From: Lachnospiraceae bacterium
Lineage (GTDB): Bacteria; Bacillota; Clostridia; Lachnospirales; Lachnospiraceae
Reading direction: 5' to 3'
NCBI GenBank assembly: GCA_011959285.1
Contig: BLLW01000030.1
Coordinates: forward strand, 1-42,304
DNA length: 42,304 nt
Shown: one piece after another, positions 5,102-36,698 of the stretch
Layout: every line of letters starts with the position of its first letter
Position numbering within the stretch: position 1 is the first letter of the stretch
Position numbers and translations under genes: made by a program
Notes under the pieces: generated by a model
Database searches by the model: none
The model's input: only the letters and a program-made list of their open reading frames with translations
Told to the model about the DNA's origin: nothing

Positions 5102-6799
5102 ATGAAGAAAAAAATAATACCTGTTCTGCTAGCAATCGTCCTTATTATAGTAATTGCAGGAATCAGCTTCGGAACAAAGATATTGGAAAAATATTCCTAC
5201 ACGAAAGAACGCGCCGACCTCGATGCCTATTTTCAGATGGCAGGAGACAGCGACGTTGCGATTGTACTACAGAATGAAATAATAGAAGAAAGAGCACGCC
5301 TTTTTGACGGCGTTTACTATTTGGATTTAAATACGGTCCATAAATATTTTAATGACCGTTTTTATGAAGATAAAGGGGAAGGACTGCTGCTTTACACACT
5401 CCCAGATGACATCATCCGCACAGTTACAGGAAGCAGTGAAGTAACCACTAAAGACGGAACCGAAACGCTTGCTTACCAGCCTGCAAGATATGAGGGCGAC
5501 ACCTTATACCTCGCCATAGATTATGTGAAGCAGTATACCAATTTCTCCTATGAAGGATTCACCGCGCCCAATCGGCTGCAGATTTATTTAAGCTGGGAAG
5601 AGCGCCAGACTGCAGAAGTCAAGAAGGATACTGCTGTACGCGTCCTTGGCGGTGTAAAGAGCGAGATTCTCGAAGATGTCGCTGCTGGAGATAAGGTAAT
5701 CCTTTTAGAGCAGATGGAAACTTGGTCAAAGGTTAAGACTGCCGATTCTGTGATAGGCTATATTGAAAACAAGCGTCTCGAAGAGCCTAGGGCAGAACTT
5801 CCCATTCCAGTCACCGACTACGAAGAACCGGAATACACCAGTCTGACACGGGATCACAAGATCAATCTTGGCTGGCACGTAGTTGCCGGGGTTGCCGGAA
5901 ACGATACACTTGACGCCGTCACCGCCAATACAAAGGGGCTGAACGTCATCTCGCCCACTTGGTTTAAATTAAGCGATAATGAAGGGAACTTCACCAGCTT
6001 TGCCAGCCAGAGTTATGTGGACAAGGCTCACGGAATGGGACTCGAGGTATGGGGACTTGTGGAAAACATCGAGTATAAGGACAGCATCGATATGTACGCC
6101 ATCCTCTCTTCCACCACTACCAGGACAAAATTAATTGATGGTCTGGTTAATGCTGCGCTTACCTACGGGCTTGACGGAATCAATGTGGACTTTGAGCAGA
6201 TCAGCATGGACTGCGGAGAACATTATATAGAATTTATCCGGGAATTGTCCATTCCCTGCCGTGCCAACGGCATCGTTCTTTCCGTAGATAACTATGTACC
6301 TACTGGATATACAGACCATTACGACAGACAGGAGCAGGGCGTTGTCGCCGATTATGTAATCATCATGGGATATGATGAACATTATGCCGGAAGTCCCGAA
6401 GCCGGAAGCGTGGCATCCATCAACTTTGTCGAGGAGGGCATCGAAAAGACGGTTTCACAAGTTCCTGCCGGCAAAGTAATCAACGCAGTTCCCTTCTACA
6501 CCAGAATCTGGGAGACGAAAGACGGCACTCTTGACAGCCAGGCAGTAGGCATGGAAATGGCGGAAGAATATGTAAATGCTCACAATATCCAGATTGAATG
6601 GGACGATGAGACCTGTCAGAATTACGGCGAGTACTCGGAAGGCGGAAGCCTATATCAGATTTGGCTGGAGGATGCAGCTTCCTTGGAAGTGAAGCTGAAC
6701 ATCATGGAAAAATATCAAATAGGCGGTGTGGCATGCTGGAGACTGGGATTTGAAAAGCCTGAGATTTGGGATATCATTGAGGCATATCTGGCAAGATAA
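5102..6799 (+). CDS. Membrane-anchored GH18-family glycosidase with SH3 domain
   Basis: A 565-residue extracytoplasmic protein. Residues 5-25 are an uncleaved signal or anchor helix. Residues about 50-165 resemble a copper-amine-oxidase-N-like stalk domain (FDGVYYLDLNTV, YLAIDYVKQY). Residues about 170-230 form a bacterial SH3 domain (VRVLGGVKSEIL, WSKVKTADSVIGYI). Residues about 250-560 are a GH18 TIM barrel of the YaaH/cortical-fragment type. The catalytic signature is DGINVDFE (D358, D363, E365), in which the first inner Asp of the classical motif is Asn, as is common in this subgroup. The likely target is peptidoglycan or another N-acetylglucosamine polymer at the cell surface or spore. 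It is monocistronic with its own promoter and a 17-bp hairpin behind it. Confidence 0.88.
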   Translation: MKKKIIPVLLAIVLIIVIAGISFGTKILEKYSYTKERADLDAYFQMAGDSDVAIVLQNEIIEERARLFDGVYYLDLNTVHKYFNDRFYEDKGEGLLLYTLPDDIIRTVTGSSEVTTKDGTETLAYQPARYEGDTLYLAIDYVKQYTNFSYEGFTAPNRLQIYLSWEERQTAEVKKDTAVRVLGGVKSEILEDVAAGDKVILLEQMETWSKVKTADSVIGYIENKRLEEPRAELPIPVTDYEEPEYTSLTRDHKINLGWHVVAGVAGNDTLDAVTANTKGLNVISPTWFKLSDNEGNFTSFASQSYVDKAHGMGLEVWGLVENIEYKDSIDMYAILSSTTTRTKLIDGLVNAALTYGLDGINVDFEQISMDCGEHYIEFIRELSIPCRANGIVLSVDNYVPTGYTDHYDRQEQGVVADYVIIMGYDEHYAGSPEAGSVASINFVEEGIEKTVSQVPAGKVINAVPFYTRIWETKDGTLDSQAVGMEMAEEYVNAHNIQIEWDDETCQNYGEYSEGGSLYQIWLEDAASLEVKLNIMEKYQIGGVACWRLGFEKPEIWDIIEAYLAR

Positions 6800-31204: not shown

Positions 31205-32719
31205 ATGAACACAACTGCAAAACAAAAAATTGATAAAAAAATCGTAATTATAGGCGGCGGCATTGCCGGGCTGTCGGCTGGTATCTATGGATGCCGTGCT
31301 GGCTATGAGGTGGAAATCTACGAAAAGAATCCCGTCGCCGGAGGTCAGTGCATGGGCTGGAACCGCAAGGGATGTCACATCGACAACTGCATCCACTGGC
31401 TTACAGGCACCAAAAAAGGCTCCTCCCTGTATGAAGTGTGGGAGACTATAGGCGCGCTTGATGAAAACACGCAATTTGTAGGCGACGATCTGTTCTACAC
31501 CACCGTCCTAAACGGTCAGCGCATGACCTTGTGGAAGGATTTGGAACGGACAGAGGCAGAACTTCTGGCATTATCCCCTGAGGATGCAGATGAAATCAAG
31601 AAATTTATTCAGCATGTACGATATGCCTCGGAATGCGAAGTGCCTGCTGAGAAGCCCATGGAAGCTATGAGCATCAAAGACTATATCCGTCTGGGTGCTT
31701 CCATGGCATATATGCCAAAAGTAACGAAAGAATACGGCTCTATTGACTTACAGGATCTGGCAGCACGTTTCAAGCATCCACTGCTTAAAGTACTTTTCAC
31801 CGACTATATTCCGAAAGAATACGTAGCAAGCTCCTTTCTGGTTTCCTACGGCACCATGGTATCAGGCAACGGCGAAATTCCCTCAGGCGGTTCTCTCGCC
31901 ATGGTAAACCGTATAGTTGAAAGATTCCGCCAGATGGGAGGAAAGTTATACTTAAACTCCCCCGTTGCAAGCGTATTAATTGAGAACGGAAAGGCTGTCG
32001 GCATCGAACTGCAGGACCGGAGGCATATCATGGCGGACTATGTAATTTCTGCTACAGATACCATGGAGATGTTCAGCCATTTGATTGGCAAAGAATATAT
32101 GAGCAAGAAATGGCAGTCCTGTTACAGCGACAGCAAAACTTACCCCCTTTTCAGCGGAATGCAGGCGGCATTCGTAGTTGACCGTGATGCTTACAGTGAA
32201 CGGGGCACCATATTCTTTGACTGCAGCCCCATCGAATCAGGGGGCAGCAGCACCTGCCGGATGTCGGTTAAAAGCTATGACTACGAACCCTCCTTCGCAC
32301 CGGAGGGAAAAACGGTGATCCAAATCAACATTGCACAGTATGATGCAGAATATCTGTATTGGAAAAGCCTGTCAAGGGAAACCTATGTGGAAGAAAAGAA
32401 ACGAATTTTACACGCAATAGAAGAGCGCCTGTACCAACAGTTTCCTTCTCTGAAAGGGCATATTGAAGTCCTGGACTGCTGGACACCTCTTACCTACGAA
32501 CGGTACTGTAATGCCTACCACGGTGCTTACATGAGTTTCACCACGAAAAAGGGCGTCAAATCCTTCCGCACAAAAAGAACCGTTAAGGGCGTGAAGAACT
32601 TTTATATAGCAAGCCAATGGCTCATGGCACCGGGAGGATTACCTGTAGCCGCCACATCCGGCAAGTTTGCTATTTGGTGGATAGCAAAAAGAGATAAACG
32701 TAAACTATTTCTCAAATGA
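31205..32719 (+). CDS. Phytoene-desaturase-like FAD-dependent oxidoreductase
   Basis: A 504-residue flavoprotein of the CrtI/amine-oxidase superfamily. The N-terminal Rossmann motif is IVIIGGGIAGLSAGIYGCRAG followed by EIYEKNPVAGGQC, and the C-terminal FAD motif is SQWLMAPGGLPVAATSG near residue 480. This family dehydrogenates or isomerises carotenoids and related lipids, and its many gut-clostridial members have unknown substrates. No carotenoid synthase (CrtB/CrtM) is seen nearby. The start follows GGAGG. It lies 12 bases after the TetR gene and 10 bases before the AraC gene, so the three form one operon. Confidence 0.85.
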   Translation: MNTTAKQKIDKKIVIIGGGIAGLSAGIYGCRAGYEVEIYEKNPVAGGQCMGWNRKGCHIDNCIHWLTGTKKGSSLYEVWETIGALDENTQFVGDDLFYTTVLNGQRMTLWKDLERTEAELLALSPEDADEIKKFIQHVRYASECEVPAEKPMEAMSIKDYIRLGASMAYMPKVTKEYGSIDLQDLAARFKHPLLKVLFTDYIPKEYVASSFLVSYGTMVSGNGEIPSGGSLAMVNRIVERFRQMGGKLYLNSPVASVLIENGKAVGIELQDRRHIMADYVISATDTMEMFSHLIGKEYMSKKWQSCYSDSKTYPLFSGMQAAFVVDRDAYSERGTIFFDCSPIESGGSSTCRMSVKSYDYEPSFAPEGKTVIQINIAQYDAEYLYWKSLSRETYVEEKKRILHAIEERLYQQFPSLKGHIEVLDCWTPLTYERYCNAYHGAYMSFTTKKGVKSFRTKRTVKGVKNFYIASQWLMAPGGLPVAATSGKFAIWWIAKRDKRKLFLK

Positions 32720-32729
32720 GGATTCAATC

Positions 32730-33662
32730 ATGGACATACATTCTCTAAAGGAAAATGCCAGACACGGCACGGTCATTTTTCCCTTGGCATTATACGAATG
32801 GAGCGGCACCGAAGACTGGCGAGTATCTCTTCACTGGCATGAGGAGATGGAACTGGTTTATTTCAAAGAGGGGACCTTTCAGGCATGGCTGAACACCAAA
32901 GAATTTCTGATCAACTCCCCTGCCTTTATGTGCATTCATGCCGGTGAGCTCCATTCCCTGATTCTGAACGCAGGCAGCCTGGAAAGCGCCGTTGTCTTTA
33001 ATCTGAATATATTAAGTTTTGAACATTATGACGCCATCCAGGCAAAGTTGATCCGCCCTCTCATGGATGGTCGTCTTCGTCTGCCCGTTCTAATCGAACA
33101 TTCTGACCCTGTTTTTCCCGGTGTGAAAAGTTATTATGAAAAAATGGAAGATGCACTCAAGGAAATGAACGCCTGCAGCCCGGAGGACGAAATTGCCAAA
33201 AACTCCGCCTATCTGCAAATCAAACTGCTTCTCTTCGATATACTTGCCCTGCTCTATAAAAATAGCAGCCTTATACATGTGAAAAATATTTGCAATGAAA
33301 ATGAACATCAGATTGAAAATCTGAAAAAGGTTCTTTCCTATATCAATGATCGATACGCCTCTCCCATCTGCCTGGATGAACTGGCTTCGCTGGTCAATCT
33401 GAACACCCAATATTTTTGCAGATATTTTAAAGAGAACATAGGAAAGACCACCACAGAATACATCAACGAAGTCCGCATTGAGAAAGCTGCTGCCGCATTG
33501 CTCGAGACAGACGACAAAATTATTACCATTGCTCAGGATACAGGCTTTGACAACATCGGCTATTTCATCCGAAGATTCAGGCAGATAAAAGGCGTCACTC
33601 CTTCCGCGTATCGATCCGAATATCGAAAAGAATCAAAAAGTCAAAATAATGCAATAAATTAG
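32730..33662 (+). CDS. AraC-family regulator with cupin sensor domain
   Basis: A 310-residue regulator. Residues about 20-110 are a cupin-like ligand domain (SLHWHEEMELVYFKEG, CIHAGELHSLI), and residues about 205-305 are the double helix-turn-helix (LASLVNLNTQYFCRYFKENIGKTT, IAQDTGFDNIGYFIRRFRQIKGVTPSAY). Such regulators usually sense sugars and activate adjacent genes. It lies 74 bases before the glucosidase-acetyltransferase fusion gene, whose promoter has a poor -35 box, so it is the best candidate activator. It ends the TetR-oxidoreductase-AraC operon. Confidence 0.9.
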   Translation: MDIHSLKENARHGTVIFPLALYEWSGTEDWRVSLHWHEEMELVYFKEGTFQAWLNTKEFLINSPAFMCIHAGELHSLILNAGSLESAVVFNLNILSFEHYDAIQAKLIRPLMDGRLRLPVLIEHSDPVFPGVKSYYEKMEDALKEMNACSPEDEIAKNSAYLQIKLLLFDILALLYKNSSLIHVKNICNENEHQIENLKKVLSYINDRYASPICLDELASLVNLNTQYFCRYFKENIGKTTTEYINEVRIEKAAAALLETDDKIITIAQDTGFDNIGYFIRRFRQIKGVTPSAYRSEYRKESKSQNNAIN

Positions 33663-33680
33663 TGAATTTTAAGCAAGATT

Positions 33681-33730
33681 TCCTCCGTATGAGATAATAT
33701 AATGTCATTACAATCTCATGAAACGGAGGA
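33681..33730 (+). promoter_or_regulatory. Inverted repeat enclosing the -10 box and Shine-Dalgarno of the fusion gene
   Basis: The left arm TCCTCCGT-ATGAGAT (33681-33695) pairs with ATCTCAT (33713-33719) and ACGGAGGA (33723-33730), all 15 bases, with only a 3-base bulge (33720-33722). A perfect TATAAT (33698-33703) lies in the loop; no -35 box is evident. The right arm contains the ribosome binding site. Transcription from this -10 starts in the loop, so the dyad works as DNA for this promoter, but a transcript read through from the AraC gene would fold it and hide the Shine-Dalgarno. Confidence 0.65.
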
Positions 33731-33736
33731 TTTTTT

Positions 33737-36034
33737 ATGAAAAAGAAATGGTGGCATGACAAAGTTGCCTATCAAATTTACCCTAAAAGCTTTTGTGACA
33801 CAAACGGAGACGGCATTGGTGATTTAAAAGGGGTCATCGATAAGCTGGACTATCTAAAAGAGCTGGGCATCGACATCATATGGCTCTCTCCCATTTATCA
33901 GTCTCCCTTCGTAGATCAAGGCTACGATATCTCGGATTATTATAAAATCTCCGAGCAATTTGGAACCATGGAGGAATTTGACACCCTGCTTGCGGAAGCT
34001 AAAAAGAGAGACATGTATATCGTGATGGATCTGGTCATCAATCACTGTTCCGACCAGCATGTATGGTTTCAAAAGGCACTTCAGGATCCGGAAGGGGAAT
34101 ACGGCGATTACTTCTACTTCCGCAAAGGAAAAGAGGGCAATCCCCCCAGCAACTACCGCTCCTACTTCGGCGGCAGCGCCTGGGAAAAAGCGCCCGGCAC
34201 CGACTATTACTATTTCCACATGTTCGCGAAAGAGCAGCCGGATTTAAACTGGAACAACCCCAAACTTTTGAACGAATTATACACCATGATCAACTGGTGG
34301 CTTGAAAAGGGCGTTGCCGGCTTCCGCATCGACGCCATCATCAACATCAAGAAGGATCCCACCTTTGCCGATCTTACGCCGGACGGACCCGACGGGCTTG
34401 CAAGCGTATGGCACATGGTAGAAAAGGTCAATGGCGTAGGCGATTTACTGGAAAATTTAAAGAAAAACACCTTTGAAAAATATCAGGCGTTCACCGTGGC
34501 AGAAGTCTTCAATATGAAAAAGGATGAATTAGTTGAGTTCGTGGGCGAGAACGGGCACTTTTCCACCATGTTCGACTTCTCCGCTCATTCACTTTCTATG
34601 GGAGAGCACGGATGGTATGACAGTAAACCCATTCAATTTGATGACTTCAGAAATGCCCTGTTTCATTCCCAGTCCGAGTGTCTGGACGTGGGTTTCCTTG
34701 CCAATATCATTGAAAATCACGATGAACCAAGGGGCATCAGCCGTTTCCTGCCATCTTACGCGCAAAATGATGCCGGAACCAAAATGCTGGGCACCATAAG
34801 CGTATTGCTTCGAGGAATCCCCTTTTTATATCAAGGGCAGGAAATCGGCATGCGCAATTGCCCTATGGAGTCCATTGAAGACTATGATGACATCAGCACC
34901 CGTGGCGAGTATCAGATGGCGCTTGCCGCAGGTCTTTCCGCGGAAGAAGCACTGGAGGTCTGTTGCCGCAACAGCCGAGACAACGCTAGGACCCCCATGC
35001 AGTGGGATGCTTCTGAAAACGCAGGATTTACTACAGGACGCCCTTGGCTTAAAGTGAATCCTAACTATAAGACCATCAATGTAAAGTCGCAGCTTGAGGA
35101 TGCAGATTCTGTTCTCTCCTACTACAAAAAGCTCCTTTCGCTGCGAAAATCAAAAAATTATAAAGATGTGTTTACATATGGAACTTTTCTTCCTCTTTAC
35201 AAAGAGGAGGGGTATATCTTCGCTTATGAACGTAAGACAGACGATAAGACCGTTGCAGTCCTTGCCAACTTTGGAAAAAAAGAGAAAACTTTATATTTAA
35301 AGGACAGCTCTGCAAGTACCGTCCTTCTTAACAATCAGGATGAAGTTCAGATTCAGGACGACCAGATTACCTTAAAACCTTGTCAGGTTCTTGTAATCGA
35401 TCTTTTGGACATGGAAAAAAGAATGCTTGCCGGGCTTCCCTACAAGACCACCAAAGAACTATTTGCCAAGCAGGCAGTAAATAAAAAGAAGATCGCCCGC
35501 TTCAACCAGCTTGACCCCACCAACCTGGAGGAAATCGTTGCTTCCCTAAAAGAGATTTTAGGCAAAACCGGCAAAAATGTTTTTATCAATGCTCCTTTTC
35601 ATTGTGACTACGGAAGCAACATAGAAGTAGGTGAAAATTTCTTTGCCAATTACAACTTTACCGTCCTGGATGTAGGCAAAGTCATTATTGGGAAAAATGC
35701 CCAGATTGCACCGAATGTGTCCATCTACACCGCCGGACACCCGCTCCATCCTGAAGCCAGAAATTCCGGCTATGAGTACGGCATCTCCATCACCATAGGG
35801 GACAATGTGTGGATTGGCGGAAACACCGTAATCATGCCCGGTGTCAAAATCGGCAATAACGTAGTAATCGGCGCCGGAAGTGTTGTGACAAAGGATCTTC
35901 CCGACAATGTCATCGCCGTCGGCAATCCCTGCCACATCCTTCGTGAAATTACCGACGAAGATAAAGACTTTTATTACAAGAAGTGCGTTTTCGACGTACA
36001 AGACTACCTTGGCGACGGATATTCCTGGCTGTAA
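33737..36034 (+). CDS. GH13 alpha-glucosidase fused to maltose/galactoside O-acetyltransferase
   Basis: A 765-residue bifunctional protein. Residues 1-550 are a complete GH13 enzyme of the oligo-1,6-glucosidase/sucrose-isomerase type: GDLKGVIDKLDYLKELG, GFRIDAI with nucleophile D199, acid/base E256 in VAEVF, transition-state D329 in ENHDEPR, and an all-beta C domain. Residues 559-765 are a complete maltose/galactoside O-acetyltransferase: a Mac domain (559-620, MEKRMLAGLPYK) and left-handed beta-helix hexapeptide repeats (about 620-745) with catalytic H668 in TAGHPLHPEAR. The junction Met559 is exactly where a free acetyltransferase would start, so the fusion probably arose by loss of a stop codon. 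Both halves look active. It is regulated by the dyad at 33681-33730. Confidence 0.9.
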   Translation: MKKKWWHDKVAYQIYPKSFCDTNGDGIGDLKGVIDKLDYLKELGIDIIWLSPIYQSPFVDQGYDISDYYKISEQFGTMEEFDTLLAEAKKRDMYIVMDLVINHCSDQHVWFQKALQDPEGEYGDYFYFRKGKEGNPPSNYRSYFGGSAWEKAPGTDYYYFHMFAKEQPDLNWNNPKLLNELYTMINWWLEKGVAGFRIDAIINIKKDPTFADLTPDGPDGLASVWHMVEKVNGVGDLLENLKKNTFEKYQAFTVAEVFNMKKDELVEFVGENGHFSTMFDFSAHSLSMGEHGWYDSKPIQFDDFRNALFHSQSECLDVGFLANIIENHDEPRGISRFLPSYAQNDAGTKMLGTISVLLRGIPFLYQGQEIGMRNCPMESIEDYDDISTRGEYQMALAAGLSAEEALEVCCRNSRDNARTPMQWDASENAGFTTGRPWLKVNPNYKTINVKSQLEDADSVLSYYKKLLSLRKSKNYKDVFTYGTFLPLYKEEGYIFAYERKTDDKTVAVLANFGKKEKTLYLKDSSASTVLLNNQDEVQIQDDQITLKPCQVLVIDLLDMEKRMLAGLPYKTTKELFAKQAVNKKKIARFNQLDPTNLEEIVASLKEILGKTGKNVFINAPFHCDYGSNIEVGENFFANYNFTVLDVGKVIIGKNAQIAPNVSIYTAGHPLHPEARNSGYEYGISITIGDNVWIGGNTVIMPGVKIGNNVVIGAGSVVTKDLPDNVIAVGNPCHILREITDEDKDFYYKKCVFDVQDYLGDGYSWL

Positions 36035-36082
36035 CAAACGCTGAAGCTTATTGTAACAAACGCTGAAGCTTATTGTAACAAA
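36031..36082 (+). repeat. 22-bp tandem repeat starting at the fusion gene's stop codon
   Basis: The unit begins GTAACAAACGCTGAAGCTTA and ends TT (22 bp in total). It occurs twice without change (36031-36052 and 36053-36074) with a third partial copy, GTAACAAA, at 36075-36082. The first unit contains the stop codon. Confidence 0.9.
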
Positions 36083-36090
36083 ATTAATCA

Positions 36091-36130
36091 AAGTGCCGCA
36101 AAATCTTCCTCCATTTTGCGGCACTTCCCT
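36091..36130. terminator. Bidirectional terminator between the fusion gene and the HD gene
   Basis: A perfect 14-bp stem AAGTGCCGCAAAAT / ATTTTGCGGCACTT (36091-36104 and 36113-36126) with T-rich stretches on both sides, serving both convergent genes. Confidence 0.9.
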
Positions 36131-36131
36131 T

Positions 36132-36698
36132 TTATAAGACCTCGTCTAATTTTTTTCCCATCTTGTTTTCAAAATATCTTTTTATTTCTATATTTTTATC
36201 CCATTTATCCTGTGGATAAGAACCATACCTGCGCTTCACATCATTCATGCGGTCTTCGATCTTCATGACGCCTTCTGCCCCGCCCACACTGTCGCACAAT
36301 TGAATCAGCCTGTCGTAATCGTCGTATTCGATAGCAGCCAGTGCTTCTTCAACTTCTCTATACTCTTCCTGCGTAATATCGATGTTGCCGATATAAGATA
36401 CGATATCCTGCGTAGGAAAGGAATGGGTCAGGCAGATTCTTGCTGCCTCGTCATACCCTTTCTCCAGCATATAATGATAGCCATCGTAAATATGTCCCAT
36501 GTGCCTTATCCCGAATTTTCGTCCGATATCATGCAAAAGCCCTAATACATAAGCTTTTTCAGAATCCATCTCTGCACATGCCGATGCGATTTTCTCTGCA
36601 CACGCAGCAACGACCCTACTGTGGTCTCCCCATGGACCAGGGTTACACGGCTCCGCCTCCTTTAAAATTCTTTCTGCTTCTTCCCGTTTCGGTATCAT
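36132..36698 (-). CDS. HD-domain phosphohydrolase
   Basis: A 188-residue HD-superfamily protein: first His at H26 in WGDHSRVV, then the HD pair H56-D57 in GLLHDIGRKFG, later His residues in HMGHIYDGY, and D near residue 140 (IQLCDSVGG). The set is consistent with a metal-dependent phosphohydrolase acting on a nucleotide or phosphate ester. ATG at 36698 follows AAAGGAG. It is the last gene of a three-gene unit with the 66-residue gene (10 bases ahead) and the metallophosphoesterase (28 bases further). Confidence 0.88.
   Translation of the reverse strand: MIPKREEAERILKEAEPCNPGPWGDHSRVVAACAEKIASACAEMDSEKAYVLGLLHDIGRKFGIRHMGHIYDGYHYMLEKGYDEAARICLTHSFPTQDIVSYIGNIDITQEEYREVEEALAAIEYDDYDRLIQLCDSVGGAEGVMKIEDRMNDVKRRYGSYPQDKWDKNIEIKRYFENKMGKKLDEVL

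What the first reader, a model, noticed from the sequence alone, without database searches (positions are those of the whole stretch)
33737..36034. GH13 glucosidase fused to a complete sugar O-acetyltransferase
Both catalytic sets are intact (D199/E256/D329 and H668), and the second half starts at Met559, just where a free acetyltransferase would begin. Known family functions: GH13 cleaves alpha-1,6/1,4 glucosides; maltose/galactoside acetyltransferases acetylate glucose or maltose from acetyl-CoA. Inference: the fusion couples release of a sugar to its acetylation, perhaps to detoxify or store excess free sugar, or to stop it leaking or being taken by the glucosidase's own back-reaction. I do not know a described bifunctional enzyme of this kind.
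Basis: partly seen in the sequence, partly recalled or inferred. Interest (0 to 1): 0.7.

Follow-up and report, generated by a model that had tools for sequence, protein, structure and literature searches.

The report
Maltase fused to sugar acetyltransferase
A group of gut bacteria has merged two genes, one predicted to split maltose and one predicted to tag sugars with acetate, into a single protein; the same two genes sit side by side in several other gut bacteria, which hints at what the acetate-tagging enzymes are for.

Summary
In detail: window 33737-36034 (+) is one 765-codon frame, a complete GH13 alpha-glucosidase (1-556) joined to a complete Mac/hexapeptide sugar O-acetyltransferase (MAT; 559-765), active-site residues intact. 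It is no artefact: the same one-frame gene occurs in 7 of 37 species-level genomes of the genus, one with a nonsense codon in the MAT half. Both halves are under strong purifying selection, form one clade in each tree, and the MAT half mostly lacks a good ribosome site. In 6 of 99 other family GH13 loci a free MAT gene directly follows the GH13 gene on the same strand, in five genera and with two MAT lineages. So the fusion is the extreme case of a recurrent pairing. Asp-Ala-Ile at 199-201 points to a maltase, not a 1,6-glucosidase. Best reading: a cytoplasmic bifunctional enzyme that splits maltose and acetylates surplus maltose or glucose. The pairing is shown; activities and the overflow role are inferred. 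The searches run found no published example. New variant of a known kind.

The parts
32730..33662 (+). AraC-family regulator gene, 74 bp upstream of the fusion; found upstream on the same strand in the 6 fused contigs and 6 unfused sister loci examined (in one sister, L014, with another gene in between), and in 5 of the 6 loci with separate GH13-MAT genes
   Evidence: Pfam HTH_18/HTH_AraC; synteny
33737..35404 (+). GH13 alpha-glucosidase half, residues 1-556; D199, E256, D329; D-A-I maltase-type motif at 199-201
35405..35410 (+). Junction residues 557-558 (Leu-Asp) between the last GH13 strand (551-556) and the retained Met559; no stop, weak Shine-Dalgarno pairing
35411..36031 (+). Sugar O-acetyltransferase half, residues 559-765: Mac cap 562-612, strands of the left-handed beta helix about 614-737, His668, and a short tail (...GYSWL) not seen at the ends of the free relatives printed
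36032..36034 (+). Stop codon of the fusion
36091..36126 (.). Terminator-like hairpin, 14-15 pairs, found on both strands, between the fusion and the convergent HD-domain gene; consensus match only

Best explanation
The gene encodes a cytoplasmic two-enzyme protein. The N-terminal half is a GH13_31-like maltase that releases glucose from maltose and short alpha-1,4-glucosides; the C-terminal half is an acetyl-CoA-dependent MAT/GAT-type enzyme that O-acetylates the same sugars (maltose substrate, glucose product, or oligosaccharides made by back-reaction) when they build up, so that they leave the reactive pool. The family of the C-terminal half forms trimers (recalled), so three maltase units would be carried on one acetyltransferase core by a short hinge. 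It arose once, in one clade of one genus, when a MAT gene became joined to the 3' end of an AraC-linked GH13 gene; elsewhere in the same family the two genes repeatedly stand together as separate genes. Shown: the architecture, conservation, selection, single origin among the genomes searched, weak internal ribosome site, and the recurrent gene pairing. Inferred: maltose as substrate, trimerisation, both activities. Least certain: the overflow or detoxifying purpose.
For: One open frame; both domain sets intact. Colinear fusion in 7 of 37 genus genomes. dN/dS over all 21 pairs: MAT half 0.035-0.071; GH13 half 0 for the near-identical window/L009 pair, otherwise 0.040-0.120. Fused rows are one clade in the MAT tree (100/100) and the GH13 tree (98/96), nested among unfused same-genus GH13s. 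Predicted ribosome pairing before Met559 averages -2.4 kcal/mol in 7 fused genes, against -8.3 before 25 free MAT genes that I picked's table and -9.3 to -11.0 before 5 fused-gene starts. Separate GH13-MAT neighbours on the same strand in 6 of 99 other family GH13 places, gaps 13-90 bp, five genera, AraC upstream in 5 of the 6; linkage needs 6 changes on the GH13 tree and one clade of all fused plus linked GH13s is rejected (p-AU 2e-45); two MAT lineages are involved. D199-A200-I201 corresponds to the A216-I217 maltase motif (PMC6070925 passages); the nearest solved enzyme by sequence and fold, BspAG13_31A (5zcb), is alpha-1,4-specific. AlphaFold2 model: both domains confident, under pLDDT 50 only at 562-570 and 755-765.
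Against: No activity is known for either half. The MAT half scores 180 bits against the 314-bit cut-off of the E. coli-type maltose O-acetyltransferase model and 192 against 347 for the galactoside model. 90 of 99 other family GH13 loci show no MAT in the fetched flank, so this glucosidase does not need it; the nearest sisters, 79-82% identical, lack it too. One of seven fused genomes has a stop in the MAT half. His203 and Asn258 of BspAG13_31A, which bind the sugar at subsite +1, are Asn203 and Phe258 here, so the exact glucoside may differ.
Confidence: 0.55

Rival explanations
1. Both halves are active, but there is no mechanistic coupling: the fusion only locks co-expression of two enzymes acting on different sugars in the same induced pathway.
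For: Separate genes in operon-like order behind AraC would already give co-expression; the acceptor of the MAT half is not fixed by family models.
Against: Recurrent pairing with two MAT lineages fits a shared substrate better.
Confidence: 0.22
2. The acetyltransferase half mainly serves as a trimerising scaffold for the maltase; acetylation is incidental.
For: Hexapeptide acyltransferases of this family are trimers (recalled); the joint is short.
Against: The MAT half, catalytic His included, is as constrained as the maltase half; unfused sisters 79-82% identical manage without it.
Confidence: 0.1
3. A neutral or nearly neutral accident joined two genes in one lineage, without benefit.
For: Single origin; one member already carries a nonsense codon in the MAT half.
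Against: Frame and both halves held in six intact species at synonymous distances of up to about 2, without indels; the pairing recurs in other genera.
Confidence: 0.1
4. Sequencing or assembly artefact that removed a stop between two genes.
For: Draft assembly in 317 contigs.
Against: The same join in seven species-level genomes with mostly diverged DNA; in six unfused sister loci no MAT lies in the held flank.
Confidence: 0.01

Closest known systems
BspAG13_31A alpha-glucosidase (Bacillus sp. AHU2216; PDB 5zcb, 8ibk)
   Same: Whole GH13 half aligns (43% identity in Foldseek), same triad, Ala-Ile after the nucleophile; alpha-1,4-specific with disaccharide preference (PMC10096246 passages)
   Different: No acetyltransferase; subsite +1 residues His203 and Asn258 are Asn203 and Phe258 here
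Maltose O-acetyltransferase and galactoside O-acetyltransferase (LacA), e.g. PDB 3srt, 1kqa
   Same: Cap and hexapeptide helix align (3-181 and 17-191 of the 207-residue half), catalytic His in register
   Different: Free-standing; the fused half scores below both NCBIfam equivalog cut-offs and carries an extra tail
TreS-Mak (TreS-Pep2) fusions
   Same: A GH13 enzyme that makes a sugar (TreS; its GH13 membership recalled) fused to an enzyme that modifies it; a bifunctional protein was characterised (PMC11046441 passages)
   Different: Partner is a maltose kinase and the GH13 is a trehalose synthase; leads to glycogen synthesis
Acetylmaltose formation and excretion in E. coli after maltose accumulation (Boos, Ferenci and Shuman 1981)
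   Same: Physiological precedent for acetylation as an outlet for surplus maltose
   Different: Not a fusion; I saw only its title in the reference list of PMC3781023, the paper itself is not held
Separate AraC-GH13-MAT gene runs in other genomes of the same family (G071, G387, G198, G215, G283; GH13-MAT alone seen in G164)
   Same: Same GH13 group and MAT family, same order and strand
   Different: Two proteins, each with its own start; two different MAT lineages

Membership tests
GH13 alpha-glucosidase (GH13_31-like) | Full alpha-amylase catalytic domain with C-terminal beta domain | tested here: met
   PF00128 444 bits, SusG_C 42 bits, both over cut-off; Foldseek 5zcb TM 0.94 by target length
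GH13 alpha-glucosidase (GH13_31-like) | Asp nucleophile, Glu acid/base, Asp stabiliser | tested here: met
   D199, E256, D329 aligned to solved enzymes
GH13 alpha-glucosidase (GH13_31-like) | Maltase (alpha-1,4) motif Ala-Ile after the nucleophile, against Val-Ile of oligo-1,6-glucosidases | tested here: met
   A200-I201; motif meaning from PMC6070925 passages
GH13 alpha-glucosidase (GH13_31-like) | CAZy subfamily 31 assignment | not testable with these tools
   No CAZy subfamily models at hand; the nearest solved relative is described as GH13_31
Trehalose-6-phosphate hydrolase TreC | Equivalog cut-off of TIGR02403 (799 bits) | tested here: not met
   566 bits
MAT/GAT sugar O-acetyltransferase family (broad) | Mac cap plus hexapeptide left-handed beta helix | tested here: met
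   PF12464 39.5 bits, PF00132 51 bits, both over cut-off; model strands 614-737
MAT/GAT sugar O-acetyltransferase family (broad) | Catalytic His in the GHP-type motif | tested here: met
   H668 aligned with the His of 1kqa and with a His in 21 of 21 free MAT rows of alignment A1
Maltose O-acetyltransferase in the narrow (E. coli Maa) sense | Equivalog cut-off of NF007499 (314 bits) | tested here: not met
   179.8 bits
Galactoside O-acetyltransferase LacA in the narrow sense | Equivalog cut-off of NF007076 (347 bits) | tested here: not met
   192.1 bits
MAT/GAT sugar O-acetyltransferase family (broad) | Homotrimer and acetyl-CoA:sugar activity | not testable with these tools
   Single-chain prediction only

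The most novel reading that the evidence does not exclude
The fusion and the recurrent separate pairs reveal the physiological job of this class of sugar acetyltransferases: a relief valve built onto an intracellular alpha-glucosidase, which acetylates the maltose and glucose pool when hydrolysis outruns phosphorylation, so that the sugar can leave the cell or no longer feeds the enzyme's back-reaction.
Probability: 0.35. Interest if true: 0.75.

Novelty: new variant of a known kind. Interest (0 to 1): 0.55.

Why it matters
What LacA- and Maa-type sugar acetyltransferases do for the cell is a long-standing puzzle (recalled; an EcoCyc analysis listed acetylmaltose among dead-end metabolites, PMC3781023 passages). 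A natural covalent union with a predicted maltase, plus side-by-side genes in five other genera with two acetyltransferase lineages, ties the family to a specific pathway step and gives a compact protein on which coupling can be tested with two point mutants.

Tried and rejected
Artefact of a missed stop: rejected by seven genomes. A separately translated MAT from Met559: unlikely, as the ribosome-site pairing is weak in the fused genes; but one, L012, reaches -6.0, inside the range of the 25 free genes (-12.4 to -1.9), and two of those 25 are as weak as the fused ones. Independent fusions elsewhere: none listed in 397 family, 392 order and 398 phylum genomes. Limits of those searches: only the two best candidates per genome were scored, E-value cut-offs of 1e-165, 1e-135 and 1e-125 were set, and the genomes are draws, so a distant fusion could be missed. 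G071 and G164 looked like fusions in the listing, but each has a stop between the genes. Origin of the fused MAT from a particular free gene: not resolved; in the MAT tree the fused clade sits on an open fork among lone and GH13-linked MATs. An ancestral pair with many losses, rather than repeated gains, is not excluded: counts of change cannot tell gain from loss, but two MAT lineages need at least two joinings. The chance estimate is rough: with 5-15 MAT-like genes per 2500 (my assumption), 0.2-0.6 of 99 are expected and 6 were seen, Poisson 7e-8 to 4e-5; the two g36 loci are not independent, and with 5 instead of 6 it is 2e-6 to 4e-4. Trehalose-6-phosphate hydrolase was considered and fails its cut-off. 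Rfam found no known RNA in 32500-36300. Foldseek's 50 printed rows were all GH13-type chains, so the fold search says nothing of the MAT half.

Rows dropped or thin: the trees left out MAT rows of 130 aa or less and GH13 rows of 450 aa or less; the change count left out L240, whose flank is 142 bp. In one search, 2 of 102 loci (L309, L324) had no visible GH13 end and stay undetermined; three of the 102 (L325-L327) were not from the family draw and were negative. Short flanks (L258 45 bp, L240 142, L289 175) could hide a MAT. In G387 the linked MAT is cut by a contig end (L230, 252 bases held); for the tree I used L231, a near-identical overlapping contig of the same genome that also begins with a GH13 3' end.

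Full report
What is there. Window 33737-36034 on the + strand is one frame of 765 codons. Residues 13-473 are the GH13 catalytic domain, 494-548 a C-terminal beta domain, 562-612 the Mac cap of maltose acetyltransferases, 685-719 hexapeptide repeats. D199, E256, D329 and H668 are in place and align with solved enzymes. The join is ...VLVIDLLD-MEKRML...: the last GH13 strand ends at 556, and a helix begins at 559. The AlphaFold2 model (mean pLDDT 90, pTM 0.74) is confident in both domains and under 50 at 562-570 and 755-765, so the joint is short and the mutual orientation unknown.

It is conserved. The window's genome has 4.23 Mb in 317 contigs; the fusion is single-copy there. Among the other matches are a separate GH13 paralogue (47% identity, C67) and a distant free acetyltransferase (C10). 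Of 37 species-level genomes of the genus, 7 carry the full-length colinear gene (GH13 half 83-100%, MAT half 84-100% to the window, itself included), and five more carry an unfused GH13 orthologue at 80-82%. Six fused loci in genome contigs (best 80 of 171 kept) are all titled as Lachnospiraceae metagenome assemblies; by their identities they appear to be the same genomes as the other six, and are not added to the count. The name Lachnospiraceae for the window's family rests on these titles. One of the seven, G010, has TAA at codon 648 where its nearest relative has AAA. Pairwise dN/dS of the MAT half is 0.035-0.071 over all 21 pairs; of the GH13 half 0 for window against L009 (no replacement), otherwise 0.040-0.120.

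How it arose. In six unfused sister loci (L014-L019) the same AraC gene lies upstream of GH13 (in L014 with another gene between), no MAT lies in the held flank, and the metallophosphoesterase gene found downstream in all six fused contigs is found downstream in three (L017-L019); the other three lack it in the flank held, L016 having only about 0.6 kb there. So a MAT gene was gained at the GH13 3' end, or kept there while the sisters lost it. Fused rows are one clade in both trees (MAT 100/100, GH13 98/96) and nested among unfused same-genus GH13s. The MAT half mostly lacks a good ribosome site: predicted pairing averages -2.4 kcal/mol in seven fused genes (range 0.6 to -6.0), against -8.3 in 25 free MAT genes picked's table (range -1.9 to -12.4), while the fused gene's own start has -9.3 to -11.0 in five tested.

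The pairing recurs. The family draw gave 100 GH13 places in 95 of 397 genomes at E <= 1e-165. I fetched sequence downstream of the 99 other than the window and searched it for MAT: 6 have a free MAT directly downstream on the same strand (G071, G387, G164, G198, G215, G283; five genera; 13-90 bp from stop to start codon), 1 has one on the opposite strand over 1 kb away, 90 have none in the flank held, 2 are undetermined. AraC lies upstream of the GH13 gene in five of the six; the sixth contig begins too close to tell. Linked GH13s are scattered: 6 changes of the linked state on the GH13 tree, and fused plus linked GH13s as one clade are rejected with p-AU 2e-45. The MATs of G071, G387 and G164 form a clade of their own (100/96); that of G215 groups with two lone MATs (97/95), and those of G198, G283 and the fused clade lie in the same larger set, which is less firmly supported (85/93). 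Two MAT lineages beside the same glucosidase, and one outright merger, argue for a functional tie.

No second fusion was listed: no match to the whole protein passes residue 608 in 392 order genomes or 592 in 398 phylum genomes (two candidates scored per genome); among MAT matches listed for 397 family genomes, none but the window's sits in an open frame over 455 aa (listing cut); the two longer spans (G071, G164) cross a stop codon.

Function. Residues after the nucleophile are Ala-Ile. In characterised enzymes this motif marks maltases, and Ala/Val swaps at this position switch maltose use off or on (PMC6070925 passages). The 18 unfused GH13 rows at 51% identity or more in alignment A1, and its 5 fused rows, keep D-A-I. 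The nearest solved enzyme, BspAG13_31A, is alpha-1,4-specific (PMC10096246 passages), though two of its subsite +1 residues differ here. The MAT half is a member of the broad MAT/GAT family but lies under the narrow cut-offs of Maa and LacA, so glucose or maltose as acceptor is likely, not certain. No signal peptide is apparent at the N-terminus (MKKKWWHDK, my reading), so I take it as cytoplasmic. I scanned 19 other window frames with Pfam; they include DnaB, GdpP, ABC-2 permeases, an FtsX-type permease with a histidine kinase, and one other glycosidase (GH18 with SH3, at 5102-6799), but no sugar transporter or maltose pathway. So the unit appears to be AraC plus the fusion, with a terminator-like hairpin after it.

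Most likely mechanism. Maltose is hydrolysed to glucose; surplus maltose, glucose or back-reaction products are acetylated from acetyl-CoA by the attached trimer. E. coli forms and excretes acetylmaltose after maltose accumulation (title of Boos 1981 in the reference list of PMC3781023; paper not held). The order of certainty is: real conserved fusion (shown), both halves selected (shown by substitution rates), shared sugar pool (supported by recurrent pairing), overflow purpose (inferred).

Comparison and novelty. Fusions of a GH13 enzyme with a sugar-modifying enzyme are known (TreS-Mak; PMC11046441 passages). Full-text searches for a GH13 or alpha-glucosidase fused or paired with a sugar acetyltransferase showed none by title and start of abstract: 12 papers; 4; 0; 0; 0; 99 papers, 15 listed. 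The library is open-access only, so much subscription and older work is not covered. I class it as a new variant of a known kind.

Noticed in passing
33663-33745: The leader of the fusion folds into a hairpin whose one arm pairs with the GGAGG ribosome site (z -4.3, 0 of 200 shuffles as good). By eye, 8 of 13 leaders folded (window, L009, L024, L012, L014, L015, L016, L019) pair the site with an upstream CCTCC-type arm, and in the window a TATAAT-like box lies between the arms, as if read-through mRNA from the AraC gene were kept untranslated.
   Followed up: partly
G740 has a GH13 in a 1235-aa frame, not looked at.
   Followed up: partly
33737-36031 against L009 4001-6295: The GH13 half is nearly identical between window and L009 (dS 0.003) but the MAT half differs at dS 0.149, while neighbouring proteins are 97-100% identical: a sharp change of similarity inside the gene, as after recombination.
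   Followed up: no
36002-36031 (residues 756-765): All seven fused frames end in G(D/E)GYS(W/F)L (in L010 beyond its stop), which the free acetyltransferases printed lack; low model confidence there. Function unknown.
   Followed up: no
36035-36078: A 22-base run after the stop codon (CAAACGCTGAAGCTTATTGTAA) stands twice in tandem just before the terminator-like hairpin.
   Followed up: no
G010 genome, L010 5942-5944: Nonsense codon (TAA where its nearest relative has AAA) at codon 648 of the fusion, with the rest of the frame still conserved: recent decay of the acetyltransferase half or an assembly error.
   Followed up: partly
L042, L050, L101-L103, L244: In several relatives a second GH13 paralogue stands directly beside the orthologue, so tandem glucosidase genes also recur at this locus; not counted systematically.
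   Followed up: no
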